A stretch of DNA of 64,000 bases, taken from contig OX442321.1 in assembly GCA_949358305.1 (NCBI GenBank), positions 7,837,605-7,901,604 of the forward strand, written 5' to 3'. Below are positions 1,627-40,237 of the stretch, piece by piece. The notes below the pieces were generated by a model, which saw only the letters and a list, made by a program, of their open reading frames with translations, ran no database searches and had not been told where the DNA came from. Made by a program: the position numbers and the translations under genes. Source of the DNA: Strigamia acuminata. Lineage: Eukaryota; Arthropoda; Chilopoda; Geophilomorpha; Linotaeniidae. Position 1 is the first letter of the stretch. Every line of letters starts with the position of its first letter.

Positions 1627-3454
1627 ATGATGAGATTCGTTGATTTGAACAGAAACGACGACGAGAGCTCTTTCGAGAAAGTCCTCAGATTGGGCTGTGG
1701 ACCTAATTTTGTTCGAAATCGTGCGGAAGAATTTGAGCAGATGATCAGAGAACAGGTAAAATAATAGGAAATTTTAAATTAGGCTTAAAATAATTGTAAT
1801 CGCACGTTTCGATGAACAGGGTTTGCAATTTTGGTTTCGTTTCTGGCTGACGTTTTGTTACAACAACAGTATGAGTGAATTTGAAGAGGTAATTTTCTGA
1901 GTTTTGTCAAGTCTGTACTATTTTATCTTTATCATTTCAGATAAACAAACTGTTGCCAGGAGTGATCAACTGCTTGCTGAAGGATATTCATGTAAATTTT
2001 GTCCAAGGTGCAGTTCCCATTAGTGGACAAAGTGGTCCAAAAATTAATTTCGGTCCAAAAATGGATTTTCGGTTCAAAAAATGAATTTTTGGTCCAAAAA
2101 ATGAATTTTCGGTCCAAAAAATGAAATTTTGATTCAAAAATTCGTTCTAAGATCAAAAAAAGTTCATTTTGAGGCAAAAAAAATCATTTTGAGGCCAAAA
2201 AAAATCATTTTGATGCCGAAAACAATTTATTTTGGCCAAAACCATCCAATTTTTTCTTCCTAATTTCTTAATTTCTCACAGCATCAAGCGACGATTCAAT
2301 TAATTATTGTTGGAATATCATATTTCCAAGTATATAATTCACTTGTTCATAATTTATATTTAATTTATTGGTTTGTTTAATTTATTTTCTAGAGTATCCA
2401 CCTATTAGAAGAGTAAGTTTCCACAGAAAGAGAGTTTTATCTTGTTGGATAATCAATATTGAGGTTTGAAAATGATTTGATAAAGGTTCTAGACGAAATG
2501 TACCAATTTATGGAAATTGGGTTCGGATGTGCACTGGGCGAAGTGTTCTTCAAATGGCTCGTGGCCAAAGATGTTTCCAGCAACCTCCAAGACCCTAAAG
2601 ACTACAAAGAGTACTGGACAATTCCTTCTCAATATCTGAATCCAAACTTCCAACCTGGCCAACTAGAAAAATACTTGGTCAAACAGTGGGGCAACAAATT
2701 CGCCAAGCTTCTTGGCGTTTCCAAAGATCAAGTGTCATGGATCCGGAAACTATTGGTCTTCCAAGGCAGTCTTGAGTCCGATCTAGACAAGAAAGCCTTG
2801 CACCATTATCACATTCAATACAACCAGAGCAAAGCTGTCAGGAAAATTGTGGAAGGATGGAAAGTTAAACTTAAACAGATGAAGAATGCACTTCAAGAGA
2901 GTGATGAAGTAAAGAAAGTTGAAGAAAGTCTGACTGGAGTAAAAATTATAAAGTTCAAACCAAATACAAATCAAGTGGACAAGTTGCCGCCGCCACCGCC
3001 AGGGAAAGCGAGCTCTGTTGACACTAGTGATACTAGCAGTGGCAGTGAGAAAGAAATGGTTCCTATTCGCCATTGTGCGTGCTGCACGTTGTCTAAAAGA
3101 CTGAAAAAATGTCAAAGGTTGGTAAATAAATGTCAAATTATGCTGTAAAGAGCGTTGGAGTGTACAAACGCTGTGTTTTTACAGGTGTAAAGAGGAAAAT
3201 TGGCCGCAAGCAAGCTACTACTGCGGTGTAGCTTGTCAAAGTATACATTTTTACGGATTATTATGCATTTTGATCATTTTTTGTTGTGGATTTGTGTTTG
3301 TCTAGGCAAGGATTGGTTCGCTAAGCACGAAAAAGAGCACTGCCAGTTCCTGCAAAAGTCTTTAATCGAAACAGCAAAGTTACACCAATTTTTACAAACA
3401 GCAACAAGGCCTAAACTGTTACAAAATCCATTATATGTTGGAAAAAAGTGTTGA
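1627..3454 (+). CDS. Family copy A: GCGP-core protein with C-terminal MYND-like zinc finger
   Basis: Eight exons: 1627-1755, 1820-1888, 1941-2007, 2282-2329, 2393-2412, 2486-3117, 3185-3240 and 3306-3454. They sum to 1170 nt, 389 residues. The start is ATGATG, as MMRFVDL. Exon 1 gives GCGPNFVRNR, exon 2 FWFRFWLTFC and exon 4 NYCWN. Exon 6 carries the core, with CALGEVFFKWL, YWTIPSQYL, LEKYLVKQWG and WIRK. The MYND-like finger is split over exons 6-8: C-x2-C, KKC-x2-C, YYC-x3-CQ, DW and H-x3-H. Such fingers usually bind proline-rich peptides, often in transcription or chromatin factors. The protein has no signal peptide or membrane segment. The N-terminal half is not a family I recognise, so the function is unknown. 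Confidence 0.82.
2035..2215. repeat. ~20-bp degenerate minisatellite, copy A intron 3
   Basis: Repeats of a GGTCCAAAAAATGAATTTTC-like unit, then TTCATTTTGAGGCCAAAAAA-like units, fill most of the intron between exons 3 and 4. Confidence 0.75.
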
Positions 3455-3817
3455 ATTTTATTTTTGTCTGATTTTAGCATTTGTTCGTACATCCTGTCGA
3501 TGTTTCCAAAACAAAACATGTTTTTTTTTCCATTTTTATTTATACGTATATATTTTATTTATTATCTTTAAAAAAATGTAAAACCAACAGAATTCAGAAA
3601 AATAAAGTCGATTAAACACACTTGAAATTGTTGATAATTTTGGTCGACAATCGGTTGCAATAATGGTTCAGAAAATGCCAATAATGGACACTAGGAGTTA
3701 TCCAATCCAACCGATTATTATATAAAATTTACAACTACACCCGGCGTTTGTTTTCTGGAATACATTTCAAAATTTGAAGTTATCACATCCACCATTCATC
3801 AGAAATAAAAAACAAAC
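3455..3817. other. Spacer between copies A and B
   Basis: 363 bp, AT-rich, with an AATAAA at 3600 that probably serves copy A. No conserved promoter element or open frame is seen. Confidence 0.5.
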
Positions 3818-6127
3818 ATGCGATTCATTGAACTGGATAGAAACGGGATGACATATTTCGACGCAGTCGTTAAACTCGGCTGCGGCCCGGGTTTTGTGCG
3901 AAATCGATCAGACGCCTTTGAACAGATGATAAGAGAACAAGTACAACTGAAAACACTCAATAAACAAATCCAAATTAACTAACCCTCATTGCCCCAACAG
4001 GGATTACAGTTTTGGTTCAGATTCTGGTTAACTTTCACCATGCATCATGAAATCAAAGAGTTTTATGAAGTAAGTAAATGCATTTTACGCAATAAACTCC
4101 TCGAATAGTCAATCACATTTCTATGTAGATCAATCGTGACATACCCGGTTTGATCGCAAGTCTGTTCAAAGGACTCCATTACCACTTTGTGCAAGGTAAC
4201 TTCGGTCTAACGTGCAAAAATATGGAATAAAATGTGGGAAATGAACAAAAAATTACAGAAATTATTATGTAGAGGCCCAAAAATTGTCTAGAAAAATGAA
4301 TTTATTTCAAATAGGGCTCTAAAAGAGATTAACTGGGGCCCTGGGCCCGGGCCCGTAAGTTAAGACTTGACTAAAATTTATCTTTTTCTACTCAAAACTA
4401 GCATCCAACGAAGAAGCGATAACTTATTGCTGGAACACCATATTCGCATGTATTTGTGTTAAAATATCGAACTTGGAGATGTTTGTTTTATTTTTTGTTT
4501 ATTTCAGGTGGAGCACCGGCCAAGAGAGTAAGAAAACTGGTGAGAAATATTTTTAATTAATTAAATTAGTTATTTTGAAACGTGAAATAGATCTTGGACG
4601 AAATGTATCAATTTTTGGAGATCGGGTTCGCTTGCGCGCTCGGCGAAGTGTTTTTCAAGTGGCTGTACGCCGAAAACGTTGGCGGTCACTGCAAACGGAA
4701 ATACTGGACCGTGCCGAAGAAATATCTGGATCCCGAGTACAAACCGGGGTTTTTGGAGGTGTTTTTGCTGTGCGAGTGGGGGAACAAGTTTGTAGAGCTG
4801 CTGGGTGTGACGAAGAACGAAGTTCCTTGGGTGAAGAAGTTGTTGCAGATACCTCTGTATCTGTTTGAGGACCGGAAAGGGATGAGCATGTATCATATGG
4901 AGTACACAAGAGCTCTTCTCGTGAGAAAGTGCTTGGAGAATTGGAAGTTAAAGATCAGAAATATGAGAGCAGCAATTCAACAAGCCGATTGTAAAAGACA
5001 AATGGACGATACCTTTGCTCCAAAGAAGCCTAAAAAAGGTAAATGAGTTTCAACAAATTTGTAAAATTCACATGTACGCCAGTGATATTTGCAAGAAATT
5101 TGCGAAATTTGCGAGAAATTTGCGAAATTTGCGAGAAATTTGCGAAATTTGCGAGAAATTTGCGAAATTTGCGAGAAATTTGCGAAATTTGCGAGAAATT
5201 TGCGAAATTTGCGAGAAATTTGCGAAATTTGCGAGAAATTTGCGAAATTTGCGAAATTTGCGAGAAATTTGCGAAATTTGCGAGAAATTTGCGAAATTTG
5301 CAAGAAATTTGCGAAATTTGCGAGAAATTTGCGAAATTTGCGAGAAATTTGCGAAATTTGCGAGAAATTTGCGAAATTTGCGAGAAATTTGCGAAATTTG
5401 CGAGAAATTTGCGAAATTTGCGAGAAATTTGCGAGAAATTTGCGAGAAATTTGCGAGAAATTTGCGGAATTTGCAAAATTTGCGAAAAATTTGCAAAATT
5501 GGCGAAAAATTTGCTAAAAATTTGCTCAATTTGCGAAATTTGTAACATTTTTGGAGAAATTTGCTCAATTTGTAAAATTTTTGGAGAAATTTGCAAAATT
5601 TGCGAGTAATTTGCGACATTTGCGGCAAAACTTTGGATTTTTCGATTTTAAACACGTTATTGTCTATTTTCAAAGTTAACAAAGTTCGGTTTCTGCTCTC
5701 GGACCTTGGCAAGATTGCTGCTGAAGCCGACGTCTATTTGGCTGCTGATTCGAGCAGCAACAGTAGCAAGGAGATCGATTTACGAGAGTCGTCAGCCCCC
5801 AACTTGATGAACTTTTTCCCCGAAGAGTCAAAAACACAAAGGATAGAAGCGGAACGTGTTATTTTGATGCCAAATGGTTCTGCAGTGGCTGATCTTAACT
5901 CGGTCATTCCAAACATCAACAATTGTGCTGCAGTCATTCAGAATTTAAAAGACATTCCCATAGTGGCTGATCATCACGCGACGAATGTCCGGCCTGCAAG
6001 CTCCGACCGCACGCCGGCAATTGATCGTTCTGTCGTGGTTAATTGTCACGAAATGTGCGATCAGCATTCAGTGATTCAAAATTTGAAGAGTCATCATCGA
6101 CTTCATGGAGTGAAGTCCAGAATATAA
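3818..6127 (+). CDS. Family copy B: GCGP-core protein that has lost the zinc finger and gained a new C-terminus
   Basis: Seven exons: 3818-3940, 4001-4069, 4129-4195, 4402-4449, 4508-4527, 4591-5038 and 5676-6127. They sum to 1227 nt, 408 residues. Exons 1-6 follow the family closely (MRFIELDRN, GCGPGFVRNR, FWFRFWLTF, ACALGEVFFKWL, LLGV..VPWVKK). After KKPKK the exon ends in phase 1, where other copies run on to the finger. The intron is filled by a 20-bp satellite. The only downstream exon that fits the phase encodes about 150 residues unrelated to the family, starting NKVRFLLSDLGKIAAEADVY and without zinc ligands. The last exon is inferred from phase and open frame. A stop just after 5038 (at 5046) is the alternative if the intron is retained. 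Confidence 0.72.
5088..5470. repeat. 20-bp satellite in copy B terminal intron
   Basis: About 19 nearly identical tandem copies of GCGAAATTTGCGAGAAATTT. Decayed units (GCAAAATT, GCGAAAAATTT) extend to about 5610. The unit is two 9/11-bp half-repeats, GCGAAATTT and GCGAGAAATTT. It lies entirely between exons 6 and 7 of copy B and is open in all frames because it lacks stop triplets. Confidence 0.95.
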
Positions 6128-6464: not shown

Positions 6465-8416
6465 ATGAAGTATATAAATTTAAACAGAAATATCAACGAC
6501 GAAAGTTATTTAAGTGCAGTGTTGAAAACGGGATGCGGACCCAATTTTATCCGCAATAGACCGCAACTGTTTGAAGCGATGATAAAAGAACAAGTAAAAT
6601 GAAAAATATGAAATTATTTTATTTCAAAAATTGATTTTATAATTAAAATTTGCTCATTTGATTCAGGGTTTAGAGTTTTGGTTCCGTTTTTGGCTGTCAT
6701 TTTGCTTGAATCACAACGTTACGGAATTTCATGAGGTAAAAAAAATATAAAAAAGAATAAAAGATGTCCAAATTGATTTTGTTTTTTAAAAGAAATTCGA
6801 AAAAATTAGTTTGTAATTTTATTTTTTATTTATGAAGTTTGAACAAGAAGTACCAGGTTGGGTAATGGCGGTGTGTCAAGTTCTCCACGATAATTTTGTA
6901 GAAGGTAGATATTAGATTTTAGATATTTTCAAATTAATGAATGTATTTTTGTTTTCAGTTTCAAGTAAGGAAGCGCTCAGGTTTTGTTGGAACGTTATCT
7001 TAAGTAAGTGCAATTATATTACTTGTTTGTACGGTAGTTTGTTTGGGTAAAGCGTACATATCTCACAGGGATACGTAAATGTTAAGTTTATAAGTGCATT
7101 ATTTTCAAGCAATGTAAAATTCATGTAAAATGTGCACTCTAGCATGTAAAATGTGCACTCTAGCATGTAAAATGTGCACTCTAGCATGTAAAATGTGCAC
7201 TCTAGCATGTAAAATGTGCACTTAACTTATAAAACATGCATTTTCGCATCTAATAAATGCAAAAATATGCATTTTTGCATTTAACTTGTAAGAAATGCAT
7301 TTTTGCATTTAACTTGTAAGAAATGCATTTTTGCAACTAAAAAATACTTTTTTTGCAACTAAAAAATACATTTTTCCATCTAAAAAATTCAGTTTTACAT
7401 ATAAAAAGTGCATTTTTGTATTCAAAACATGCAATTTTGAATCTTTACTCTTCTAGTTTTTATTTTAGCTCATTTTCGTCTAGCTAAATGCATTCTTACA
7501 CATAGAAACGGATAAAAGTTTAAATAGTTTGTTACCGTGTATTTTGTCCTGTCTATACAACTACAGTCTGCATGGTGTCGAGATTTCATTGTACTTCATT
7601 CTCTGCTAAGTGCTAAAAAAATCCCAAATATAGGAAATAAGCTCCTCTCTCAAATATTATCCATCTCACCGGCCGAATACAAGACCCCACTGAAAACCAA
7701 GCCAGCATTTTATAGACAACAAGTATAAATGCAAACAATTCCAAACGATCTATCATACTATACAGAAAAATCAAAGTTAGTTTGCAGAATCTACATCGGA
7801 ATTTGTTCAAATCGCTTTCGCGTGCGCACTCGGCGAGATCTTCCACAAATGGCTGAACACGGACGAGAACGACGCTGGCAAGAAATACTGGTCCGTTCCG
7901 GACCGTTATTTAGAGCCGGACTTCAAGCCGGGAGTCCTGGAAAAATTCCTGGTGGACAAATGGGGCATCAAATTGGCCAAGTTTTTCGGCGTCGGTGCAG
8001 AACGGCTCCCGTGGGTCCGCCAAATGCTGCGATACGACAGAGGCATCTTGAAGTACGTCGACGATCCGACTTTGGGCAGACCGACCGGTCCCGCCGCGTT
8101 GATTGGTTTGCCGCGCCCTTTGGAGGATCGCATAGACACGTGGAAGTCGAAGGTGAAACAAATGCGACATGAAATTCAAACGGTTGACGAAGGGCGGAAA
8201 AACGATTACGGCAAGCATTTGAAACGTTTGCAACTGAGGAATCGGGACAAGTCTATCTCTAGTCACTCGGAGGTCTTGCTGCAGTCCGAGGCCAGTGGCG
8301 ACACGAGTAAAGAGAAGGGGAGCACGCGCTTAAAGAAAAATGGACAGTTTTCGTCGTGCACAAACACGTGTTGTGTAAATAAGGGCCGGAGAAACAACAA
8401 GGAAATAAAAATGTGA
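6465..8416 (+). CDS. Family copy C: shortened member with decayed zinc finger
   Basis: Exons 6465-6593, 6667-6735, 6838-6904, 6959-7003 and 7788-8416 sum to 939 nt, 312 residues. It starts MKYINLN and has GCGPNFIRNR, FWFRFWLSFC and RFCWN. The small exon 5 seen in every other copy is missing; exon 4 (phase 1) joins the core exon directly in frame. The core is intact (FACALGEIFHKWL, YWSVPDRYLEP, LEKFLVDKWG, LPWVRQ). The finger region has shrunk to CTNTCCVNKGRRNNKEIKM followed by a stop, and I found no exon for the second half of the finger. It is either a finger-less functional variant or a gene starting to decay; the intact core frame argues against an old pseudogene. Confidence 0.7.
7115..7440. 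repeat. ~20-bp minisatellites in copy C intron 4
   Basis: Five copies of a 21-bp GCATGTAAAATGTGCACTCT-type unit are followed by looser TTGTAAGAAATGCATTTTTG units. All lie inside the long intron before the core exon. Confidence 0.85.
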
Positions 8417-8765: not shown

Positions 8766-11564
8766 ATGAGATATATTGACTTGAGAAAAGGGAAGAGGAA
8801 AAGTTCGGTTCATGCGGTCCTCAAGTTGGGATGTGGGCCTAATTTCGTCAAGAATCGCGCCGAAGCTTTTGAGCAGATGATTAAAGAACAGGTTAGGCTA
8901 TTTTAAGCCTGTTGTTGTCATCAGAAATTTGATAAATTTTACAGGGAGTGGAATTTTGGTTCCGGTTTTGGTTAACGTTTTGTTTCCAACATGGCATCAG
9001 AGAATTTGACGATGTAAAATAATAAAAACGGGCAGAAAAGAGATGATTTTTACCTATATTAATGCTTTTCTTTTTCTTTAAATTTAAGGTTGATGATGAA
9101 TTGCCAGGATGGACTACAACACTACTGAAAGACCTGCACAGGAATTTTGTTGAAGGTATAATGGATGCTGGAAGCTTAGGTGTCATTTTATTTTTTTAAA
9201 TGTCACAAAATGCACTTTTTAGGTGAACGAGCAATTGATTATTGTTGGAATGTCATATTTGAAAGTATATCAATCACGACTACAATTTATCTATTCATTC
9301 ACTACAATTTATTTGTTTTTGTCTTGAAAAGCTGGTCCACCTATGAAAAGAGTAAATAGTGTAAATCCTCCAATTAGGTTCCAACTAATTGCATCATTTA
9401 ATTGCCGCATCGTGCTCAGAGGGGTCCCGAACTTTCAAATTTCTAAGAAAATTTGATGATTTTTCAATAAATAAATTCGTTTTTGCTAATATTTTGGGGC
9501 CCCACTAATCACTTTTTCCTGAGGTCCTGCAAAACCTGGTTGTCGGCAATTAATTGTCTGGATACTGTACCCCTGGGTTCAGCTAGGGAACTGTGTACCG
9601 TATTATCCCACTTTAAGCCGCATGCATGCCTGTATATACTCGAAACCACCACAACGTTGACCTAATTCAGCCGGTTTACGCCTAACTGTGTACTGTGTTC
9701 GACTACGCGGGAAAAGTACTTCTGTGTCAAAGCATCACCTTTGACAATGTTGGTAATCGATCACAATGTCTGGAGTTTGATTACAATTCTGGTGTTTTGG
9801 GCTACTTTTTTGTGTCACTACACCAGTGAAATAGGTCAACGTTGTGGTGGTTTTGAGTATAGTGCGAGTTTTACTGGCATGCCAATATAAACCGCGTTGC
9901 CAGTGTAGGTGAGTAAGAATTTGTTTCAATCAGAATTGACTCAAAACAAGCGTAAAAAGCATTTTTAGATGTCCAAAATGTAGGAAATCGGCCTAAACTT
10001 TTATAAATTTTCCCAAATTTTAGTAATAATCTTCAGAATATCAAGAAAACTCAAATTTCTGGCCCAAATTCCAACATAATTATTCATCCCAGCTGTTTAA
10101 TAAAAATAAAAAAACCAAGTTTTTCACTTACACCTGCACGTTTCACTTTATACCGGCATGCTGGTATAAACTGTTTGACTGTAATTCCAAAAACCTAGTA
10201 AACCCATGTCCAACGACATGCAACTTAAAGCGGGATAATACGGTAGGTGACTATTGGAGGATTTGTGGTGACTGAAATGTTAATTTGAAGATTGACCTTC
10301 TGTATAACAGATTTTAGATGAAATTTACCAATTTGTGGCAATGGAATTTGCTTCTGCTCTTGGCGAAGTGTTTTTTAAGTGGCTTGTTGCTGACGAATTG
10401 AACGGCCAAGCTAAAGAGTATTGGAAAATCCCTGATGTTTACTTGGCTCGAAACTTCCAGCCAGGAGTGTTGGAAAAGTTTTTGGTGGCACAATGGGGCA
10501 AGAAACTGCTGCATCTTTTGGGCGTGTCGAGAAGAGACGTCTTTTGGATTCAGGCGATGCTGAGTCGGAAAAAACCAGCTGAAGATAGCGATTACGGTGT
10601 GGAATTCTTTGAGAATGCGAAATTAATTCGTAAACGGTATAAATATGTTTGGAAACTGAAACTGAAAGGAATGAGAAAAGCGATTGATAATGCTGATGAG
10701 TTGAGAAAACTACATCAAAATAGAGCTGGAACAAAAATAATCAAAATTGCCAGTGATGTTAAGAAAACTGCAACTGCAACTCAACAGACTGCGAAACAAC
10801 CGCAGTGTTCGTGTTGTGGTACCATTGCTCGAGTAAGGAAGTGCCAAGTGTAAGTACTGGATTATTAAGGAAAAGTTAAGAGGTTTGAATCCATCCATAT
10901 ACACACATTTTAACACTGCGAAACAAAATCGGAACGTATCTATCATATAAAAACAGAATTGGGAGAACAGTCGAGTGTCGTTACAACGAATCACAAGGGA
11001 CCAGAAAAATCGATTCGTTATAATGAGAATTTGTTATATCGAAATTTTTTAACATGGTGTTCTATGGCCAGCCAACCAAACGGGCCATTTTTAGGTATTC
11101 GTTATATCGATAATTTGTTATATCGCGATTCGTTATAAAGAGTTTCGACTGTATACCGTGTACATTGCGGTTTTTATGGAAACCGCACCGCACTTGCAAA
11201 AAGAAATAACCGCACAACCCTACTAAACACCATGGACAGGCATTCTGATTGGTTAATGCTAGAATTGTTTTCTTATTTTGTATTAATATATATTCTTATA
11301 CTTATGTAGATGCGTTGACGAAAACTGGCAAAAGCCTAAATACTACTGTGGAATTTCGTGTCAAAGTAAGTTCACTTTAATTTTGTAATGATCATGATGA
11401 AACTTAAAAAAAAATTAAATTAACAAGGTAAAGATTGGTACGAGAAGCATAAAAAAGAACATTATAAATATATGAAAAGGAGAAAACATGTAATGTTGAA
11501 GGCGAATGCGAAAATGTTACAACAGGGTTGTTATGAGAAAACTTCATCTTCAATTGAAAGTTAA
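8766..11564 (+). CDS. Family copy D: GCGP-core protein with MYND-like zinc finger
   Basis: Eight exons: 8766-8891, 8945-9013, 9089-9155, 9223-9264, 9332-9351, 10311-10849, 11310-11365 and 11428-11564. They sum to 1056 nt, 351 residues. It starts MRYIDL and has GCGPNFVKNR, FWFRFWLTFC, DYCWN, FASALGEVFFKWL and LLGVSRRDVFWIQ. Its alanine-serine at the usual alanine-cysteine of the core is unusual. The finger is complete: CSCC, RKCQVC, YYCGISCQ, DW and HKKEH. Intron 5 carries a 646-bp inverted-repeat element and intron 6 a pogo-like one. It is the most compact complete member and probably closest to the ancestral layout. Confidence 0.82.
9598..10243. mobile_element. Non-autonomous inverted-repeat transposon in copy D intron 5
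   Basis: The terminal inverted repeats begin CCGTATTATCCCRCTTTAAG and are flanked on both sides by TA (9596-9597, 10244-10245), as for Tc1/mariner-like insertions. A second inverted pair lies inside (about 9634-9668 against 9831-9866). Part of the interior resembles the element at 31248-31624. It encodes no transposase. Confidence 0.75.
10968..11151. mobile_element. pogo/Tigger-like MITE in copy D intron 6
   Basis: The ends read CAGTCGAGTGTCGTTACAAC and, on the other strand, CAGTCGAAACTCTTTATAAC. Internal GTTATATCGA repeats are also present. Ends beginning CAGT with TTATAACGA-like sequence are typical of pogo/Tigger elements. A TA follows the right end; the left flank is AA, so the target duplication is not clean. 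Confidence 0.65.
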
Positions 11565-12150: not shown

Positions 12151-12658
12151 TCATCCAAAAAAATCTGCGCCTGCACTCACAGCATTTTTAGCCAGAGAGA
12201 GTAATGACATTCCTGATCCACCATCAGAGGATAATGGTGTTTTTACTGCTACTACTGATGGTATTTTAGGCACTACTGCTACTGGTATTTTAGGCACTAC
12301 TGCTACTGGTATTTTAGGTGCTTTTAATGGTATTTGAGCTGCTCCTAATGGTATTGGAGGTGCTCCTATTCCTACTGGTATTGGAGGTGTCTTTGCTGCT
12401 ACTACATCATTCGTAAGGTTGTTTGCTGCAGACGATACTAATGCTTTGGCTGCATCTACTGCTAGTTGTGCTGCTCCTATTGCACCTTTCGCTACGACAG
12501 CCAATCCTGCTCCAATAATGCTTGAAGAAACAAAGTCACCTATGGACTTGATTGAAGTGCGACATACACCAGGACCAGGAAAACCTTTGAGTCTTCCACA
12601 TCTGCGAGAACAGCAATCGTTGTTTCCCATACAATGTCCTTTTACTGGTTGACACGAC
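12151..12658 (-). CDS. Inhibitor-cystine-knot peptide with long hydrophobic, proline-rich tail (5' exon not found)
   Basis: The open exon runs from an acceptor near 12658 down to TGA at 12151. It starts with six cysteines spaced C-x6-C-x5-CC-x3-C-x10-C, the classic knottin (ICK) pattern of many arthropod secreted peptides, including antimicrobial, regulatory and venom types. Unlike those, it continues for about 125 residues: a hydrophobic Ala/Val segment, then PKIPVAVV repeats and a short Ser/Gly-rich end. A signal peptide should lie on an upstream exon that I could not place. The sequence does not tell a toxin from an ordinary secreted ICK protein, and nothing suggests a venom role. It is probably exported. 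Confidence 0.6.
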
Positions 12659-12879
12659 CTTTTTGTGGAAAAAGAGAAAAGAATTTATTGCTGACTGTTT
12701 ACTTGTATTATACTAGAATTGCAATATTGTTATGAAATGCATCTAGGGCCGCCACTGTGCAGCAAGAAAAATTTTGAAGAAAACTTTAATTAATTAATTT
12801 TAATTTTTTAACAAACATAAAATTACAAACATTAAAATTACTGCTAAAAAAATTAAAAAATTAAAGTAAAAAATTTTCA

Positions 12880-12949
12880 CAGACAGCAGGATTTGAACCT
12901 GTGTGGAAAGATTCCTAGTCCATTACCTGAACCACTGGACCACCACTAC
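12880..12949 (-). repeat. tRNA-derived SINE head or tRNA pseudogene
   Basis: On the minus strand an A-box-like TGGTCCAGTGGTTCAGG and a B-box AGGTTCAAATCC stand 25-30 bp apart. The anticodon arm and acceptor stem do not pair well, so this is not a working tRNA. The AT-rich sequence downstream is consistent with a SINE body. Confidence 0.6.
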
Positions 12950-13633: not shown

Positions 13634-13651
13634 GTAAAGAGTAGCACTTGA

Positions 13652-28900: not shown

Positions 28901-30245
28901 GTAAAAAATCACTCGAGCAACAAATTCACCGCCACCGAGGTCGAATCGAAAAACAAATTCACCGCCACTGACGTCGAAGTAAAAAACCACTCGAGCAACA
29001 AATTCACTGCCACTGACGTCGAATCGAAAAACAAATGCATCGCCACTGACGTCGAAGTAAAAAACAGTTCGAGCAACAAATTCACCGCCACTGAGGTCGA
29101 ATCGAAAAACAAATGCACCGCCAGTGACGTCGAAGTAAAAAACAGCTCGAGCAACAAATTCACCAACACCGATGCAATGAAATGCGACAAGCTGACCAAC
29201 ACTGATGCTAAACGAAGGCCTAATAAGCCGTTGTTTAATCCATTTTGCTGTCAGCTGTGTCCGAAAGCCCAAATGCCGATTAAAAATGGCAAATTCGGCT
29301 GTCTGAAAAAGCCGAAAATCGTGGAAAAACCCAAGCCGTGTTTGGTCGGTTATAAATTCGGTAAATTCAAACCTAAACTCGCGTTCAACGAGAAATACAA
29401 CTCTCCCGTCGTCAAAGCGAAATCCACGAATGCCACCATGACCGATCCGATTCCAAAACAAGAGGTCGGTTGCATCGAGTCGAACGATTTCGGTTCCAAC
29501 ATCGAGATACTCAAGTCGGTGATTAAAAAATTGAATAGTGGCGGCCAATCCGACGATTTTCCCACGTCGGACGCCGCAAACGGGTCGAAAAGGTCGACGA
29601 AAATCACAATCGACGTGCAACCGCCGGAGATACGCGAATCACAAGACGCACGACAAAGCGATGTGCAAGACAAGCGATATTACAACGATTTGCAAGACGC
29701 ACGATACGTCGGCGATTACCAAACTAAGCGGCAGCTAGTGCAGACGCCCGATCGTGGTCCTGGGGTGGCTGAACCTGGCAAAATGCTTCCCTATTTTTCG
29801 ACTCCCTCGATAGATATTTGTGTTAGAAACACGACGAATGGTAGACCGGTTGTGGCGGAAAGAGTGTTGCTTGGAAAAAATGCAAAATTAGAGCGACCGG
29901 TTGGTTACACGTCCGAATTGTACGAGCGACGAGCGCCGTCTAAATTACTCATGTCACCGCTTCAATGTTCGTGTTGTCACGACACTCGGAACCCGCTCAA
30001 GATTTGCCAGAAGTAAGATTTTGGTGCGTAGTTTGCGGTTGTTATAGTGTGTGATTTATTTTTGTTAGATGTGCGGACGAAGATTGGCTAAATCCGAGAT
30101 ATTACTGTGGTATTGTCTGTCAAAGTTAGTATGAAAATGTGACGTTACGCAAGTTGGTTTGTTTTTAGTTTTTCTTCTTTTAATTGCAGCAAAACATTGG
30201 TTTCAAGCGCACGAAAGAGAGCATCGTTTACGTTCAAATTTGTAA
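25963..30245 (+). CDS. Family copy F: giant member with cassette extension exon and MYND-like finger
   Basis: Nine exons: 25963-26088, 26170-26238, 26300-26366, 26880-26927, 26990-27036, 27112-27929, 28030-30012, 30069-30124 and 30190-30245. They sum to 3270 nt, 1089 residues. It starts MRYIDLRRN and has GCGPNFVRNR, FWFRFWLTFC, SYCWK, FACALAGIFYKWL, LEKFMIKHWG and VPWIRQ. Exon 5 is the long form. Exon 6 ends with a decayed finger start (KNCQQ, phase 2). Exon 7 (1983 nt, frame-neutral) adds a disordered region with NKFTATDVEVKN repeats and TNTD motifs, and ends in a fresh finger start, CSCC..KICQK. The last exons complete the finger (YYCGIVCQ, HW, HEREH). Skipping exon 7 would keep the frame. 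Confidence 0.8.
26390..26823. mobile_element. hAT-like non-autonomous element carrying a minisatellite, copy F intron 3
   Basis: The left end, GGGCTGGACTAAGG, pairs with the right end CCTTAATCCGTCCC. A direct repeat ACCAAGCA flanks both sides. The inside is mostly ~20-bp CGCCTAGAAATGCATTTTTT-type repeats. Similar ends flank minisatellites in copies G and H. Confidence 0.6.
28845..29165 (+). repeat. Coding repeat in copy F exon 7
   Basis: Alternating units encode VEVKNHSSNKFTATD and VESKNKFTATD. They are highly similar at the DNA level (GACGTCGAAGTAAAAAA). Confidence 0.9.
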
Positions 30246-30545: not shown

Positions 30546-30569
30546 AAATCAGGATTATCTCGACGTACT

Positions 30570-33500
30570 ATGAGATTTGTTGATTTGAGAAGATCCGCAT
30601 GTGAATCCCACTACGATTTCGTGATCAGAATGGGTTGTGGACCGAACTATGTTCGAAACCGTCTTGAGTCATTTAGGGAGATGATAGTGCAACAGGTATA
30701 GAGCCCTTTCTTATACAAGTTACTTAATGTCTGATTTTTTTCCTATTTTTCAAATGTCAATTCAGGGGAAGGTGTTTTGGTTTCGTGTTTGGTTAAGCTT
30801 TTGTTTACAGCCAGATATTAAAGAAATTGAACAGGTATAAATACAATTGTGTGCAAAATATAAATATAAGAAAGCATAATTTCTTTTATTTTTAGTTCAG
30901 TCAAGAATTACCGATTAAAACCACCTCTTTGAGTCAACTTCTTTGCAAGCGATTTGTCCAAGGTTAATATAGATTAGTAAACATAAAATCCAAAGGATTA
31001 AAGGAAATTAAATGCTTGTACAATTTCAGATACACCTGATGCAGTAATTACTTATTGTTTGACCGTCGTTTTTGAAAGTATAAACAAATATCAATTCTAG
31101 TTTATAAGAAAAGTTTTGCATTTAGTGTATATTTTAAGAGCCGGCACCGGTTGGGGTAACTGAAATAATACTGTCAGACGGCCTGGTAAGTTGCTACAAA
31201 TATGTGCGTTCAAAGTTTCTGTTTATGCCATAAATCGCAAAGACTTAAGTTGGGCCTTTCTCTCTTTCTCCCATTGGGCGAGCCTCATTACTCTTAACTG
31301 TAGACTGTGTACTGCCACCAGGATAAGTAGTTTTGTAGTTTTTTTAATTTTTTGATTATTATAATGGTTAAAATGATTTAAATTTATTTGTTTTTTATAA
31401 TGAAATGTTTTTTCCATTCATAAAATTAAGTTTTATGCCGTTTTTAATTCATAATACATTTTTGTTTAGTTTATTGCTGGCTTTGTCAGGAAAGCAAACA
31501 ATTTTTGAATTTATTTTTTCGATTACAATGTCTGTACATCAAGTGTAATTCTGTTGTTTTTGGTCTGTTTTTTTGTATCACTACACAAGTGAAATGGCTC
31601 GGCCAATGAGAGAAAGGCCCAACTTATAGTGGGTTAAAGTATAGAGTGGTCTTCGAAAGGGTTTATTACGTCTCGTTTCGGCTTTTACAAACAGAAACTT
31701 TGACATCAACCTAACGCTTTGCACTTTAGTTTTTTAGAACACAACTTATAGTTTATAGATGAGAGTTATCAGCTTGTTTTAATCAAGTTTGCGTGTGCAC
31801 TTGGAGAAATTTTCTACAAATGGCAGCGCGCTAAAGTGATTAAAGATGACGACGCCGCGTACTGGACATGTCCTCAGCAGTATTTGTCTGCGAATTTCGA
31901 GCCGGGAGAGTTGGAAAAATTCATGATTAAACATTGGGGTACAACATTGGAGGAGCTTTTTGAGGTCAACCGCAGCCAAGTTCCTTGGATTCGAAAATTG
32001 ATGTCTACGAACGAAATCGACGTCGATCACAGTGACAAACTGTCGTACTCTAGCTTCGACTGCTTACAAAACAAAGATATCACACTCAAACTGAAAACCT
32101 GGATATTCATAGTGAAGAAAATGAACCAGTCCATCTTAAATTCCGACGAGGTGTCGATTTTTCCGCCAATACAGAACGTTGAAGAAAGCAAAGAGGCCAC
32201 ACCCGCGAAGCCACGGATTGATTTGAGCAATTGGGAGGGCACTGTTTGGCCGGAAAAACGGGTGAAGAAAGCTGCCAGTCAGAGCGACCTTAGTAGCCGC
32301 CAAGAAGAATTGAGAAACTACGAGGAGGAAGAAAAGTCATTGGAATGTTCGAACAAAAAGAAAGAAAAGTGGAACAGTCTGGAGAAAACTGACGAACAAA
32401 CACAGAAGAAAAAGCAGCAAATGAGGAGCAAGAGCCGTTCGAAACACACAGACATTGCAGACCAACCAGCACAGAACAATGCAGCCGAACATGGTTCGAA
32501 TCGTCGTTTGGTCAAGGAAAATTCTGCACATGACCCCTTAGTCATTCTCCGAGGAGGAAATGTTAGAACAGAGTCCAGCGACGATCTTTCTCCACTAATT
32601 AGCACAAAAAGCTATGGCTTTACCGCTTTCGGTACTCCTGAACTGAAGAAATGCCCTCAGTAAGCTTTAAATTTGTGGCAACTAAAGATGTCCTAATGTC
32701 TTCCCTACGATGGAAAAGCAATAGGCAATCTTAGCTGTTGGAATATTGCGCATGAGGAATTTAATTATAATGGTTATGGCTAAACAACATCGACACTTAC
32801 CATGTTTACATGTACCCAGTTATCTGGATAAATGAAAATGCGAATTTTACTTTACTGGAAAACTGATCATGTAAACAAATCAGTTTTCTAGAAAAGACAG
32901 ACTTATCTGGAAAACTAAATTCCACTTGTACGAGCTAGATTTTGGCCGTTTTGCGCATTGAAAACTGCATATAAACACCCGTGCATGCAAAAATTCAAAA
33001 ACTTGGATCGAGTTATTGTCGGATCGTTGTAGTAAAAATACGTGTTCATGTGGTAACAGTTTTCCAAATAAGTGAAAATTCGGATTTTATTTATCCGGTT
33101 AACCGTGCGAGTTTATGTGACGTTAGTTTTTTGGTAAACTTGACGTATGTGAATTATCCATAATGCATTTTGATTATCTGGAACAACAAAATGGTTGTCG
33201 ATCTATTTCAGCCCTTCAACAAATCAAATTTAGCTCATGTAACCTCTCCCAAAAGCAAGAAGCATTAAAATTTGTTATAAAACAAAGGAATAAGGGGTAC
33301 GAAATATTACGGTCAGTACGCCATTTTTAGGCGTGCACAGGTGTTTACATGTAGTTTGCAATATCTAAAACGCCCAAAATCTATCTCGTACAACTGGAAT
33401 TTGGTTTTCTGAATAAGTCTGTCTTTTCTAGAAAACTGTTTCGTTTATACGAGCATATTTCCAGAAAAGTAATATTTGGATTTTCACTTATCTAGATAAC

Positions 33501-36500
33501 TGAGTACATGTAAACAGGGTAAATGTTAAGATTTAAAGGAGCGGATTGAGAACTAACAATAATTTCAGAGTTTTAAGGCTTAACAATAACTCAGTGACGT
33601 TAATTTCAGAAATCGATGGGTTGAATGCATCTCCAGTGGCAATTTTCAGAGTCAATCTTTACCCAGTGTCAATGAAAAGTGTTCAACGACTGAAAAGTCT
33701 TCTAACACTGATGATGATGATGATAGTTCTAAGGTTCATGTTTGAAGTTTCAAATGTTTACAAAATACTGATGAAGCGTTTTCTTTTTAATTTTTAGGAC
33801 TATCTCAACACTAAGAACAAAACCTCTGCATATAAATTTGAGTCAACTATTACCAGTGCTCATAAGTCTACTTACACTATTGTTAATTATGATCGCAAAA
33901 TTATTACTCCTAACGACACTGGGGCTGCTAGTAAACCCAAGACTAAAGTTAACGTTCTTCTAATTGATAAGTCCACTGGTATTGGTGGTACCAAAGTTGA
34001 TACCAGTACCAGTACATATAATGCCTACACCATTAGAGATAGTAAGGTTGATACCCACACTTCTACAGCTAGTAAGGTTGATACCCACACTTCTACAGCT
34101 AGTAAGGTTGATTCCCACACTTCTACAGCTAGTAAGGTTGATACCTATACTGCTACAGATAATACGGTTGATACCGACACGGCTACAGATAGTAAGGCTG
34201 ACACCTACGCCAGTACAAATAATAAAGATATTACTCACACCAAAACAGATAGTAAGGTTGATACCTATACTGCTACAGATAATACGGTTGATACCTATAC
34301 TGCTACAGATAGTAAGGTTGATACCTATACTGCTACAGATAGTAAGGTTGATACCGACACGGCTACAGGTAGTAAGGCTGACACCTACTCCAGTACAATT
34401 AATAAAGATATTACTCACACCAAAACAGATAGTAAGGTTGACACCTTTACTTGTACAGATAGTAAGGCTGACACCTACTCCAGTACAAATAATAAAGATA
34501 TTACTCACACCAAAACAGATAGTAAGGTTGACACCTTTACTTGTGCAGATAGCAAGGTTGACACCGAAACCAATACAGATTGTAAAGACGATATCTATAC
34601 CAGTACAGATGATCATGGTGATACCTATACTGGTACAGACAATAAGGTTGACATCTCTACTAGTACAGACAGTAAAGATGATTCGTATGCCCGTACAGAT
34701 GATAAAGGTGATACCTATATCAGTACAGTTAGCAAGGTTGACACCAGCACCAATACAGATAGTAAAGTAGACAGCTACACCGATATGGATGATAGAACTG
34801 ATATTTTTACCAGTACCAATACACATAGTAAAGTTGACAGCTACACCGATATGGATGATAGAACTGATATCTTTACCAGTACCAATACACATAGTAAAGT
34901 TGACAGCTGCACCGATATGAATAATAGAAGTGATATCTTTACCAGTACAGATAACACCTACACCGATATGGATAATAGAACTGATATCTTTACCAGTACC
35001 AATACACATAGTAAAGTTGACAGCTGCACCGATATGAATAATAGAAGTGATATCTTTACCAGTACAGATAACACCTACACCGATATGGATAATAGAACTG
35101 ATATCTTTACCAGTACCAATACACATAGTAAAGTTGACAGCTACACCGATATGGATAATAGAAGTGATATCTTTACCAATACAGATAACACCTACACCGA
35201 TATGGATAATAGAAGTGATATCCTTACCAGTACAGATAACACCTACACTGATATGGATAATAGAACTGATATCTTTACCAGTACAGATAACACCTACACC
35301 AGATCAGACACTAAAATTGATACCTGTACTAGCCCAGATATAAAAATTGATACATATTCCAGCCCAGATATTCAAATTGATACCCATACGAGCCCAGATA
35401 TTCAAATTGATACCTTTACCAGCCCAGACATTCAAATTGATACCTTTACCAGCCCAGATATTAAAATTGATACCTATACCAGTACAGATACTAAATGTGT
35501 CGGGACTGATGGTTCTAACGATATACCAAACACAAATCGTGGGAGAAACAAAGTGCGAAGTTTTCAATCGCGAGGCACCAGTACTAGAGAGTCTTCCCCG
35601 CATCATCTTCCGACCATTCTTTCGTCATCTACAGTGACTTCAGCCGATCCAATTGGTGCAGATATTCGAGATACTCATCAGAAACCACCCACTCGTCGTC
35701 GCGTGAATTTTAAACTGGACAATACTCCCATACCCATACGTGGAATTTTATCGAACCACCATCGTTCTCGAGACAAGTTTGACAAAGTGAGCTTCTCGCC
35801 TAAGATAAAGAAACGGCCCGACAGGTATTTGGACAAACTGAAGCAGGATTCGGCAACCGAGCTGGATGCCACCAGCACCGATGCTGTCACCGATTCCAGT
35901 ACGTGGGTGTCCAGTTCGCTGGATAGTTGCTACATAAATAGTGACAGTACTGTAGGAAGCTTTCCAAGCAAACCAAATCGCCTTTCGAACAGATGCCGAA
36001 GTTCAAAACACAGCGTGGCTTTTAAACATTGTAAAAGACCGTTTAAGCCATGTTTGTATAAAATTAAGAGCGAGGAAATGTCTGACAGTAATAATTATAT
36101 CGAAAAATGCAAGTCGCTTACTGCCAGCACTGGTGCTAAGGATGAAGACTTGACCTTTGTGGAGAAATTCATCCTGAACAAAGAAGACAATGGCGACAAA
36201 TCTGACAATGGGGATAAATCAGACAAATCAGACAAATCCGACAAATCCGACAAGTCCGACAAGTCCGACAAATCTGACAAATTCTATAAATCCTATAAAT
36301 CCGACAAATCCGACAATGGCGACAAATCTGATAATTATAGCGACGATGAGTTTACCAACACAAATTCGGACATCAGCAGTATAATTTGGCCGAAAAACAT
36401 TTTGAAAAATTCGGCCGAAGTGAGGTGCGTTTTCACCGCCGACGAACAACCCGTGTGCCCGTCTGTGAGCAATTTAATCTGGCCGGAAAAAATTTTGAAA

Positions 36501-37274
36501 GTAAGAAGAATTAGTACTGACGATTCCACCGACACGCAAACTGAACAGAAACCAGTAAAATATTCTCGGAAACTCTTAGAAATGGGGGACAGCGACAGTG
36601 ATACAGATATTTTGTTGCCTCCAAAAAATCGTAAACTCGAAAAATGTGCAAAGCCTTTGCAGAAACCAGGGAGCGTCTTGGACTTTGATAATTTCTGCAA
36701 GGAGAATAAGCGTCAGCGCCAACATATGTGTGCAAATTGTTTAAACACTGTGGGCAAGCTGAAAAAATGCCAACTGTGAGATTTTATTGACGTTTTTCAG
36801 GGCCGGATTAATAAGGCAGTGCATGTACAAAATGCATATTTTTGTCCATAAAGGCATTATGTGTCTGAAATGCATTTTTTTGAGTCTAAAATGCATTTTT
36901 TTTTAGTTTATAATGCATTTTTTTGAGTCTAAAATTTATTTTTTCATACGAAATGCATTAATTAGCTTAAATATGCAATTCTTAAACTCAAAATGAATTT
37001 AATGCTCATACAAAATGCCCCCGAAGCTTTAATCCGGCCCCGAATTTTATAATTTTGTCTAAATGCATTCTATTTATTCATTCTCAGATGTGTGGAGAAA
37101 AAATGGCCATCTCCAAGATACTACTGTGATATTGCATGTCAAAGTCAGTATGATGTTTTACTATACACAATTATTTTTGTTTAAAAATCCATAATTTTTT
37201 TTTCTGTTTTAATTATAGGTATACATTGGTTTCAAAAACACGAAAGAGAGCATTGTTGGAGAGATAAAAGTTAG
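30570..37274 (+). CDS. Family copy G: largest member, TSTD-rich repeat extension and MYND-like finger
   Basis: Ten exons: 30570-30695, 30766-30834, 30896-30962, 31030-31077, 31139-31185, 31752-32659, 33610-33733, 33798-36775, 37088-37143 and 37219-37274. They sum to 4479 nt, 1492 residues. It starts MRFVDLRRS and has GCGPNYVRNR, FWFRVWLSFC, FACALGEIFYKWQ, LEKFMIKHWG and VPWIRK. Its exon 4 has YCL where others have YCW. Exon 6 ends KKCPQ, a finger-start remnant. Exons 7-8 together are frame-neutral (3102 nt) and encode about 1000 disordered residues: ten-residue SKVDTYTATD repeats, then TDIFTSTNTHSKVDSYTDM repeats, a DKSDKSDKS run and two SxIWPEKIL-like motifs. The finger reads CANC, KKCQLC, YYCDIACQ, HW and HEREHC. 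The exon 7 acceptor was chosen as the one in-frame option. Confidence 0.78.
31248..31624. mobile_element. Inverted-repeat transposon in copy G intron 5
   Basis: The ends AGTTGGGCCTTTCTCTC are inverted and flanked by TA on both sides. The interior shares TCACTACAC-AAGTGAAAT-type sequence with the element at 9598-10243. It has no coding capacity. Confidence 0.75.
32800..33519. mobile_element. 720-bp inverted-repeat transposon in copy G intron 6
   Basis: Inverted ends CCATGTTTACATGTA / CCCTGTTTACATGTA continue for about 45 bp through CAGTTATCTRGATAARTGAA. They are flanked by TA. Further mirrored blocks (GTTTTCTAGAAAAGACAGAC) lie inside. Confidence 0.75.
34040..35510 (+). repeat. Coding repeats in copy G exon 8
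   Basis: 30-bp units (GATAGTAAGGTTGATACC plus ACT-rich triplets) give way to longer TGATATCTTTACCAGTAC units. The array encodes regularly spaced TxTD/TSTD peptides. Confidence 0.92.
36800..37040. mobile_element. hAT-like element with minisatellite, copy G intron 8
   Basis: The ends GGGCCGGATTAATAAGGC and GCTTTAATCCGGCCC are inverted. About eight ~20-bp TGCATTTTTTTGAGTCTAAA units lie between them. Confidence 0.6.
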
Positions 37275-37514: not shown

Positions 37515-37538
37515 AAGTCGGGAACGGGATCACAGAAC

Positions 37539-40237
37539 ATGCGATTTATTGACTTGAGAAGAAAGAAAACCGATTCATACTTCAATGCAGCTATTAAATT
37601 GGGTTGCGGACCAAATTTTGTTCGAAATCGATACGCATTGTTTGAGCAGATGATAAGGGAACAGGTGACATAAAAAATCCAATACTTGTATCTCCTCAAG
37701 TTGGATATATAATTTTTCCGATGTAAATTTTCGTTGTTTAGGGGAAGGAATTTTGGTTTCGATTTTGGTTGACCTTTTGTGTACATCCAGATATTAAAGA
37801 AGTTGAACAGGTAGAGTCAAAGAATAGTATTCTGTGGTACAGTCGTGTACATTCGGTGCGTGAATAAACGAAATGTGCGTAAATTGTAACGTTTACATTT
37901 TAGTTTAGCCAAGAATTACCGATTAGAACCACTTCTTTAAGTCAACTTCTTCACAGCCGATTTGTTCAAGGTATATAAAAATCTTAATTTTGCAAACATA
38001 GGGCTGGATTAAAGGCATTAATGGATCAGTTAAAGACTAAAAACACTTTTGTACACGTTTAAATACATCTCTACAACTGTACATGCATATTTTTTCCTCA
38101 AAATGCTTTTTTGTGTTAATCTGCTACTTTTCGCCTAGGAGTGCATTTATTTGGCTTTGAAATGCATTCATTTTGCTTTGAAATGCATTCATTTTGCTTT
38201 GAAATGCATTCACCAGGCTTTGAAATGCATTCATTTGGCTTTGAAATGCATTTTTTTGGCTTTGAAATGCATTTTTTTGGCTTTGAAATGCATTTATTTG
38301 GCTTTGAAATGCATTCATTTGGCTTTGAAATGCATTTTTTTGACTTTGAAATGCATTTATTTGACTTTGAGGTGCATTTATTTACTTGTAAAAGCGTTTT
38401 TCGGCTTAAAAATGCCTTTTTCTGGCTTAAAAATGCATTTTTCTTGCTTGAAAATGCATTTTTCTGGCTTAAAAATTTATTTTTTGAACCTAAACACGCA
38501 TTTTTGGACTAAAAATGCATTTACAGTATTTGACTGGGAAAAATGCATTTCTTTTGGTCTAAAATACATTTATTTGATTGGAATATTCATTTTTTGGCCT
38601 AAAGAAGCATTTTTTATTGTCTAAAATGCGTGTTTTTATTCAGGGTCCTCTTTAAAAAACCTTAATCCGCCCTTGATTAAACTTAAAATAAAATGTTTAA
38701 TGGAAACAAAATTCTGTATTCACGATTTCAGCTTCGAGTGATGCGGCAATATCTTATTGCTGGAAAGTTGTTTTCGAAAGTAAACAAACCTCGAGTTTAA
38801 AATTTCTAACAAAAAAAAATTGTTGATGTTGATGTTTATTTTAAGAGACGACACCAGTCGGAATGACCGAAATCATTATGTCTGAAGGCCAGGTAAGCTC
38901 CCGACGGTTAATACCGGAAGTTTTTTTTTAAAAAAAAACAACACAATTTTCAGTTTATAGACGAAAGTTATCAATTTGTTGTAGTCAACTTCGCTTGTGC
39001 TCTCGGTGAAATCTTCTACAAATGGCTGCGCGCGAATGACGTTGGGACCGACAAATCAGACTACTGGTCGGTTCCCTCCGAATACTTAGAGCCAGAATTC
39101 ACTCCGCGAGAACTGGAAAAATTCATGATCAAGCAGTGGGGTCAAAAATTGGTGGATCTTCTCGGCGTTAGCCGGAGCCAAGTGCCCTGGATCCGCAAAT
39201 ACGTGCTGTCGAAACCAAAAAGCGACCACAAGAACAAATTGTTCTACACGAGCTCGGATTGCCTGCGCTCGAAAGCGATCGCGAAGATGCTGAAAACGTG
39301 GCTTTTCAAAGCGAAGAAAATCCGCAGGGCCATTCGGGAGATCGACGAGAAGCAGATTTTGGTGTCGGGTAAAGCCAGCAAGAAACGAGACAAACTCGCG
39401 GTCGGACCGAGGAAGCCGAGCTTTAATCTCAGCTTCCACGACGGCAAAAACTACGAAATCAAACGCGAGATGATGGAACAGCTCGAGAAACGAGCGCGGC
39501 GAGCGCTAAAGCGACAAGAAGCTGAGAAATTGGAAAAAAAGGCGAAAAAGGTTAGCAAGGATAAGATCGATTGGGCGAAGAAGAAGAAAATGTCATCGCA
39601 CCATTCGGATCCGCAGTTAAAAAAAAAGAAAAAGCAGCATCACAGCCACCACAAAACGCGTTCGAAGCAGTCGATCGTGCTCGACGCGGCAACCAACACC
39701 GACTTTGACAACATTCCTCCGCCCGACGGTTCCTCCAACACGACCACACTTAGCGACCAAACAAGCCCCTCGTGTCTTCCAAGATTACCGTTAAATGCAT
39801 TTGCTGGTGTTCCTTCCCACCAAGACGTCAAATTACGTCGCTGTTTCACCTGCAATGCCGCTAGTCTTATCAAAATGAAGAAATGTCAACAGTAAATTAT
39901 ATATTTTATATTCTCTTTAATTTTATTTTTTTCATTTTTATTTTGCAGGTGCGTGGACGAAAAATGGAGCAACCCTCGATATTATTGTAATATTGTGTGC
40001 CAAAGTGAGTTTTGGGATGTTTTTGTTTTGATTTTGGATTTTTGATGGAAAAAATTGAATTTTGCAGCTAAAGATTGGTTTCGGCGGCACGAGCGGGAAC
40101 ACAATATGTATACGCAACACGTGCTAAAGAACTGCGGGGTTTATTTAAAGAACAATGATGTTGTTGTGAAGGGACAGAGTGAGACGAGCGGCAGCTCAGA
40201 AACGATTCCAAATCAAAATCCCCAAGCAACGTTCTGA
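37539..40237 (+). CDS. Family copy H: GCGP-core protein with lysine-rich linker and MYND-like finger
   Basis: Eight exons: 37539-37664, 37742-37810, 37904-37970, 38732-38779, 38846-38892, 38954-39891, 39949-40004 and 40068-40237. They sum to 1521 nt, 506 residues. It starts MRFIDLRRK and has GCGPNFVRNR, FWFRFWLTFC, SYCWK, FACALGEIFYKWL, LEKFMIKQWG and VPWIRK. Exon 5 is the long form. The linker is moderate in length, with a Lys/Arg/Glu helix-like stretch (EKRARRALKRQEAEKLEKK), a single TNTD motif and an H/K-rich run that could act as a nuclear localisation signal. The finger is complete: CFTC, KKCQQC, YYCNIVCQ, DW and HEREH. A 43-residue polar tail follows it. H is probably the ancestral form of the E-H subfamily. 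Confidence 0.83.
38001..38672. mobile_element. hAT-like element with minisatellite, copy H intron 3
   Basis: The ends GGGCTGGATTAAAGGC and CCTTAATCCGCCC resemble those in copy F at the same intron. The inside is an array of GGCTTTGAAATGCATTTTTT units (about 38140-38640). No target duplication is visible. Confidence 0.6.

What the first reader, a model, noticed from the sequence alone, without database searches (positions are those of the whole stretch)
1627..40237. Eight-copy tandem array of an apparently undescribed gene family
Eight plus-strand genes share exon-by-exon architecture: GCGPNFVRNR block, FWFRFWLTFC block, LLxxxHxxFVQ block, YCW block, and an ACALGE-FKWL-LEKF-WG-LLGV-PWIRK core. 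Most end in a MYND-like finger. The N-terminal ~300 residues match no family I know. Hand-built models of all eight close in frame. Such local growth of a nuclear-type zinc-finger protein suggests fast lineage-specific evolution, perhaps in germline, chromatin or defence roles (inference).
Basis: partly seen in the sequence, partly recalled or inferred. Interest (0 to 1): 0.88.

Follow-up and report, generated by a model that had tools for sequence, protein, structure and literature searches.

The report
Centipede MYND-like finger gene array
Eight neighbouring genes in a centipede genome belong to a much larger, old and still-maintained gene family that joins a so far unnamed front domain to an unusual zinc-finger tail, probably used to hold other proteins together.

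Summary
The array is real: eight plus-strand genes (1627-40237) splice in frame from ATG to stop. The genome matches Strigamia acuminata qcStrAcum1.1. It is not a local oddity: at least 56 core exons lie on seven contigs, none with an internal stop. The window's eight form one clade (99/90). Synonymous sites are saturated in 14 of 28 window pairs; the other 14 give dN/dS 0.10-0.29. The one outside relative found, S. maritima T1IVL7, is the close orthologue of one chromosome-1 copy, so duplications in that part of the tree predate the species split. The N-terminal ~230 residues have no credible match in Pfam or the PDB. Six of eight genes end in a MYND-like finger whose last ligand is His, not Cys; all 22 last exons found among 24 other finger-bearing copies agree. 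Most likely these are intracellular adaptors; function is inferred.

The parts
1627..3454 (+). Gene A, 8 exons: 1627-1755, 1820-1888, 1941-2007, 2282-2329, 2393-2412, 2486-3117, 3185-3240, 3306-3454; N-terminal domain + MYND-like finger
   Evidence: Pfam zf-MYND 21.3 bits, below cut-off 22.7
3818..6127 (+). Gene B, exons 3818-3940, 4001-4069, 4129-4195, 4402-4449, 4508-4527, 4591-5038, 5676-6127; no finger; last exon uncertain
   Evidence: core exon hit at E 9.6e-27
6465..8416 (+). Gene C, exons 6465-6593, 6667-6735, 6838-6904, 6959-7003, 7788-8416; exon 5 missing, no finger
   Evidence: core exon hit at E 1.7e-22
8766..11564 (+). Gene D, 8 exons: 8766-8891, 8945-9013, 9089-9155, 9223-9264, 9332-9351, 10311-10849, 11310-11365, 11428-11564; MYND-like finger
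   Evidence: Pfam zf-MYND 18.2 bits
19308..25608 (+). Gene E, 10 exons; large S/T-rich tail with in-frame repeats; MYND-like finger within 24459-25608
   Evidence: repeats
25963..30245 (+). Gene F, 9 exons; tail with 78-nt in-frame repeat; MYND-like finger
30570..37274 (+). Gene G, 10 exons; very long T/D/S-rich tail with many in-frame repeats; MYND-like finger
   Evidence: (exon 7 acceptor before 33610)
37539..40237 (+). Gene H, 8 exons: 37539-37664, 37742-37810, 37904-37970, 38732-38779, 38846-38892, 38954-39891, 39949-40004, 40068-40237; Lys-rich tail; MYND-like finger
   Evidence: Pfam zf-MYND 20.1 bits
39949..40004 (+). Exon 7 of H, second half of the MYND-like finger; same 56-nt exon at 3185-3240 (A), 11310-11365 (D), 24564-24619 (E), 30069-30124 (F), 37088-37143 (G)
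33798..36775 (+). Large tail exon of G, 2978 nt open, tandem repeats with periods all multiples of 3

Best explanation
An array of eight working members of an old, large centipede gene family (at least 56 core exons in this genome). Each protein has an N-terminal region of about 230 residues of no recognised family (helical in a low-confidence model), a variable and probably disordered linker or tail, and in most members a MYND-like finger with ligands C2-C2-C2-H2. Most likely mechanism (inferred): intracellular adaptors. The finger docks a short peptide motif on a partner, as MYND fingers are known to do (recalled knowledge), the N-terminal region binds or self-associates, and the tails differ between copies and give each copy its own partners. 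Copies without the finger (B, C) would act through the N-terminal region alone. Shown: genes, exon plan, copy number, selection, finger ligand pattern. Inferred: expression, zinc binding, peptide docking, location in the cell, biological role.
For: Open, spliced models for 8 of 8. No stop inside 56 of 56 core exons. dN/dS 0.10-0.29 in the 14 of 28 pairs with estimable dS. All 26 of 26 tandem-repeat rows inside exons have periods that are multiples of 3, against 7 of 20 in introns and spacers of the array, a sign that the tails are translated (rows overlap). The finger exon was found in 24 of 41 non-window copies read and the closing W-x3-H-x3-H in 22 of those 24, in 6 of 6 window fingers and in S. 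maritima P0001. zf-MYND is the only Pfam family that all 3 window proteins match; it is matched by 2 of 10 rows, where most rows are cut before the finger.
Against: No expression, structure or binding data. Pfam zf-MYND stays under its cut-off in all four full-length proteins for which I saw the score (21.3, 18.2, 20.1 bits; 18.9), and the last Cys ligand is replaced. Both AlphaFold models are poor (mean pLDDT 58.8 and 59.9), so no fold supports an adaptor reading. In 9 of 41 non-window copies I found no finger exon in the stretch scanned and in 2 only a degraded one, and B and C lack it, so the finger is not essential to every copy. The first half of the finger was matched by a loose pattern in 19 of the 24 finger-bearing copies, a few of those doubtful; 5 showed none.
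Confidence: 0.5

Rival explanations
1. Transcription or chromatin cofactors in the style of MYND corepressors: the finger recruits a nuclear partner and the Lys-rich tails (H, F) take the protein to the nucleus.
For: K is the commonest residue in the tails of A, C, D, F and H; H has long K/H-rich runs. A MYND-like finger is present in most copies that could be judged.
Against: No confident DNA-binding, SET, PHD or bromo domain in the proteins scanned; one weak MerR_1 match in H (E 0.038, under its cut-off). Nuclear location is untested, and K-rich disordered tails are common.
Confidence: 0.2
2. Fast-evolving defence or germline-conflict family, expanded by an arms race.
For: High copy number, tandem clusters, several copies without a finger, very different tails.
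Against: dN/dS 0.10-0.29 over the N-terminal domain in 14 of 28 pairs, the rest saturated. The only orthologue pair available is conserved: 200 identical residues in a 274-column alignment of which 42 columns are gaps, nearly all from exons left out of my model. Pairwise averages do not exclude a few positively selected sites, and tails were not tested.
Confidence: 0.12
3. Ciliary or axonemal assembly factors, like the MYND proteins of cilia (ZMYND10, ZMYND12).
For: Best sequence match of the finger of A in the PDB is ZMYND12, but only at E 0.076; the neighbouring gene is EFHC2-like.
Against: The match is not significant; SMYD2 chains follow at E 0.14. Neighbourhood says little in animals. No TPR or armadillo repeats reported in the proteins scanned.
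Confidence: 0.08
4. Decaying or silent copies of a transposon-borne gene.
For: Dispersed over seven contigs.
Against: Shared introns, no stop inside 56 of 56 core exons, purifying selection, in-frame repeats, no confirmed viral relative in one scan of viral contigs. Flanks were not searched for transposon features.
Confidence: 0.03

Closest known systems
T1IVL7_STRMM, 'MYND-type domain-containing protein' of Strigamia maritima (UniRef; P0001)
   Same: Same N-terminal domain, same finger with W-x3-H-x3-H; profile E 2.5e-75, 35% identity over 93% of A
   Different: In the tree it is the orthologue of a chromosome-1 copy (core at C1:18625664-18625906), not of any window gene
zf-MYND (Pfam PF01753)
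   Same: C-x2-C, C-x2-C, YYC-x3-CQ and the following W; matched in 3 of 3 window proteins scanned
   Different: Last ligand His in place of Cys, one extra residue between W and the first His, longer loop with a conserved W before YYC (canonical spacing recalled); scores under the Pfam cut-off
SMYD (SET and MYND) proteins
   Same: MYND finger; SMYD2 chains match the finger of A at E 0.14
   Different: No SET domain reported in A, D, H or P0001
Sel1-repeat + MYND single-exon genes of the same genome (e.g. C3:35,771,751)
   Same: Amplified MYND genes in the same genome
   Different: Intron-free at the one locus read, finger over the Pfam cut-off, Sel1/TPR-like N-terminus (label by eye)

Membership tests
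zf-MYND (PF01753) | First three Cys pairs of the finger (C-x2-C, C-x2-C, YC-x3-C) | tested here: met
   Present in 6 of 8 window genes and P0001; B and C lack them
zf-MYND (PF01753) | Final ligand pair His-Cys (H-x3-C; consensus recalled) | tested here: not met
   H-x3-H in 6 of 6 window fingers, P0001 and all 22 last exons found among 24 other copies (the scan accepted H or C at the last place but required the first His)
zf-MYND (PF01753) | Score over Pfam's curated cut-off of 22.7 bits | tested here: not met
   21.3, 18.2, 20.1 bits, 18.9 bits; profile positions 1-38 of 39 matched; E, F, G not scanned
zf-MYND (PF01753) | Binds zinc and a short (Pro-rich) peptide | not testable with these tools
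   needs protein
SMYD | SET domain around the finger | tested here: not met
   no SET match listed for A, D, H at E up to 1 nor P0001; E, F, G not scanned
ZMYND10/ZMYND12 ciliary MYND proteins | significant sequence or fold match | tested here: inconclusive
   finger of A to ZMYND12 at E 0.076; fold models too poor
Family of T1IVL7_STRMM | shared N-terminal domain and C6H2 finger | tested here: met
Family of T1IVL7_STRMM | shared exon plan | not testable with these tools
   S. maritima DNA not held; the plan is shared among S. acuminata copies

The most novel reading that the evidence does not exclude
The N-terminal region is a new domain family restricted to centipedes, or even to Strigamia and its kin. 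It was joined to a finger that changed its last zinc ligand from Cys to His, and spread to more than 50 genes, mostly before the Strigamia species split. Genes E-H then multiplied a short T-x-T-[D/E] motif in their tails into ladders (7, 12, 26 and 1 copies against 1.9, 0.8, 4.0 and 0.07 expected from composition; none in A-D; one of six patterns tried), which would act as multivalent docking or phosphorylation sites.
Probability: 0.3. Interest if true: 0.65.

Novelty: new variant of a known kind. Interest (0 to 1): 0.47.

Why it matters
A family with at least 56 copies in one animal, kept by selection and in part older than a species split, yet without a named domain over its first ~230 residues, is a sizeable blank in myriapod biology. 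It offers a natural series in which a zinc finger changed its last ligand and kept the change, and in which tails grew by in-frame repeats. It also shows how a reader of one window can take a genome-wide family for a local burst.

Tried and rejected

Not answered: a wider protein search with the S. maritima protein or the ten-row profile, so the taxonomic reach rests alone (one profile, relatives sharing five-residue words, the length limits of that tool); paper searches on centipede or arthropod MYND genes other; the 2014 S. maritima genome paper; a genome search with P0001 as query.
Full report
What is there. I rebuilt the eight genes from the raw sequence. Each starts with an ATG exon of 123-129 nt, a 69-nt exon 2 (FWFRFWLTFC), a 67-nt exon 3, a 42-48-nt exon 4, a short exon 5 (20 nt in A, B and D; 47-50 nt in E-H; absent in C) and a long exon 6 with the conserved core (ALGE, FKWL, YWxxP, LExF, PWIRK). 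All eight translate to one terminal stop with GT-AG splice sites. Two of my first models failed: C only works without exon 5, and G needs the downstream acceptor before 33610. A, D, E, F, G and H have a 56-nt exon and a last exon that complete a MYND-like finger; a scan of B and C found none.

The tails are coding. The inner exons of E, F and G are long and open (one of 2978 nt in G). Of the 69 tandem-repeat rows, the 26 that lie inside predicted exons all have a period divisible by three; of the 20 in introns and spacers of the array, 7 do. I left out of this count 4 rows upstream, 7 in the D-E gap and 12 downstream. Rows overlap, so these are not 26 independent events, but the contrast is what a translated frame would give.

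Which genome. The genome search places the window at C10:7837605-7901604 of a 237,517,015-base assembly in 157 contigs. Contig C1 has 66,985,994 bases, the exact length of the longest scaffold of Strigamia acuminata qcStrAcum1.1, whose stated span is 237,534,282 bp in 158 scaffolds (PMC10556566; first of three parts of the text and passages seen). C10 at 10,363,448 bases fits chromosome 8 (10.36 Mb) in that paper's table. The species name is therefore an inference from lengths, a strong one.

Not eight but at least 56. A search of the whole genome with a family-like core found 56 core exons at E <= 0.001 among 58 candidates, none with a stop inside; the tool calls such counts lower bounds. They lie on seven contigs: 33 on C1, 9 on C10, 5 on C3, 5 on C9, 2 on C5, 1 on C4 and 1 on C8. 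The largest cluster (neighbours under 100 kb apart) has 23 on C1 at 18.495-18.706 Mb; the window's eight are the second largest. I read 41 of the 48 outside the window. In 36 of the 41 exons 1 and 2 were also found with the expected splice sites; three had no exon 2 and two no exon 1 by my scan, and these five were dropped from the tree. Two copies on C1 at 39.94 and 40.35 Mb have identical scores and lie on opposite strands.

The finger. Among those 41 copies, 24 have a finger exon with AG and GT in place (score 48 or more), 2 have a degraded one, 6 had under 850 bases of room to look in, and 9 showed none (sorted by me from that output; in three of the nine the room was under 2000 bases, and in finger-bearing copies the exon lies up to 2000 bases downstream). 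In 22 of the 24 I found the last exon, and in all 22 it reads W-x3-H-x3-H, although the scan would also have taken a final Cys. The first half of the finger was matched by a loose pattern in 19 of the 24, a few of them doubtful. The six window fingers and S. maritima P0001 agree. The usual MYND ending is W-x2-H-x3-C (recalled). Pfam's zf-MYND matches A, D, H and P0001 over profile positions 1-38 of 39, below its cut-off, whereas 51 of the 55 hits of that family elsewhere in this genome pass it (I recognised no split finger of the present family among them). The change of the last ligand is therefore a family mark, not a sequencing slip. Zinc binding is not shown.

Relatives. The profile of A, D, H, B and C found one protein among 6500 candidates at E up to 1: UniRef T1IVL7 of the centipede Strigamia maritima, E 2.5e-75 (taxonomy). 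No further protein search could be made. Pfam, NCBIfam and the PDB gave nothing credible for the N-terminal region (the weak hits are listed under Tried and rejected). The two AlphaFold models have mean pLDDT 58.8 (P0001, 17 rows) and 59.9 (H core, 9 rows); in the first, residues 171-210 reach 89-95. Fold searches gave nothing usable. So the N-terminal region is unassigned; it is not proven to be a new fold.

Age and selection. In a tree of 45 rows (36 other copies, 8 window genes, P0001) the window genes are one group with 99/90 support, E-H one group with 99/90, and A-D weakly one (88/18) (FastTree has the window group at 0.919 and E-H at 0.885). P0001 pairs with copy L015+1756 at 100/98, with branches 0.034 and 0.044 against a median end branch of 0.38. 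So the neighbouring copies split long before the two Strigamia species did, at least in that part of the tree; for the window clade itself no orthologue was available. Among the 28 window pairs dS is beyond estimation in 14; in the other 14 dN/dS is 0.10-0.29, with dS from 0.52 (F-H) to 3.22. Constraint is clear; a recent burst is not.

Tails. T-x-T-[D/E] occurs 7, 12, 26 and 1 times in the tails of E, F, G and H against 1.9, 0.8, 4.0 and 0.07 in composition shuffles, and never in A-D (one of six patterns tried; for E the largest of 500 shuffles was 6, for H 2). Much of this in F and G comes from tandem duplication, so the counts are not independent, but TNTD itself occurs in all four of E-H. 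It could be a docking or phosphorylation motif. F and G also end exon 6 with a copy of the finger exon's end (KNCQ, KKCPQ), a likely trace of an internal duplication (seen).

How it most likely works. The simplest reading is an adaptor: an N-terminal domain that binds or self-associates, a flexible tail, and a peptide-docking finger, with copies that differ in tail and in whether they have the finger. The steps from finger to docking rest on what is generally known of MYND fingers (recalled), not on a test here. A chromatin role, a defence role and a ciliary role remain possible and are ranked in the rivals.

Surroundings. The 5' neighbour matches EFHC2 at E 7.1e-18. Downstream lie PIG-M at 40820-42070 (PF05007, E 1.2e-80) and a KDM6/UTX-like gene (JmjC 2.4e-29 and KDM6_C-hel 4.5e-28, protein 2). 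Between D and E are minus-strand ORFs unrelated to the family by inspection.

Print. Two completed paper searches bear on this: MYND + gene family expansion + springtail listed one paper, on Tudor genes (listing and abstract start seen), and Strigamia + MYND listed none. All later paper searches on MYND genes failed.

Verdict. Observation confirmed. Interpretation partly supported: a family with an unassigned N-terminal domain, yes; a local, fast-growing array, no. New variant of a known kind: a MYND-like finger family with a changed last ligand and an unassigned front part.

Noticed in passing
12151-14929, minus strand: An ORF with a signal-peptide-like start (by eye) and an 18-nt repeat (45 copies; P/A/G/S-rich), and a Cys-rich ORF downstream of it; no Pfam match for either. 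Possibly one secreted, cystine-rich protein.
   Followed up: partly
16465-17061 and 18400-18735, minus strand: Two coiled-coil ORFs, alike by eye, inside the D-E gap; the first matches HALZ at E 1.4e-7, probably through its heptads.
   Followed up: partly
introns and spacers of the array, e.g. 506-780, 5087-5624, 26516-26739, 38142-38522: Minisatellites with periods near 20-21 nt, several with an ATGCATTTT core, in introns of several of the genes and of the 5' neighbour.
   Followed up: no
L029 (C3:35769501-35774000) and one search hits on C3 and C4: A second amplified MYND gene set in the same genome: long single frames; the one read has Sel1/TPR-like repeats (by eye) and a canonical finger.
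   Followed up: partly
C1:39,940,795 and C1:40,346,604: Two family copies on opposite strands with identical scores, and three MYND hits nearby with equal scores in 305-aa frames: looks like a recent inverted duplication or unmerged haplotypes.
   Followed up: no
43371-59600: KDM6/UTX-like demethylase gene (TPR part by eye, JmjC and KDM6_C-hel by Pfam) with long introns, next to the array.
   Followed up: partly
8338-8416: Gene C ends in a Cys-containing stretch whose last bases resemble, out of frame, the end of the finger's first exon in its neighbours (by eye); it may be a lost finger.
   Followed up: no
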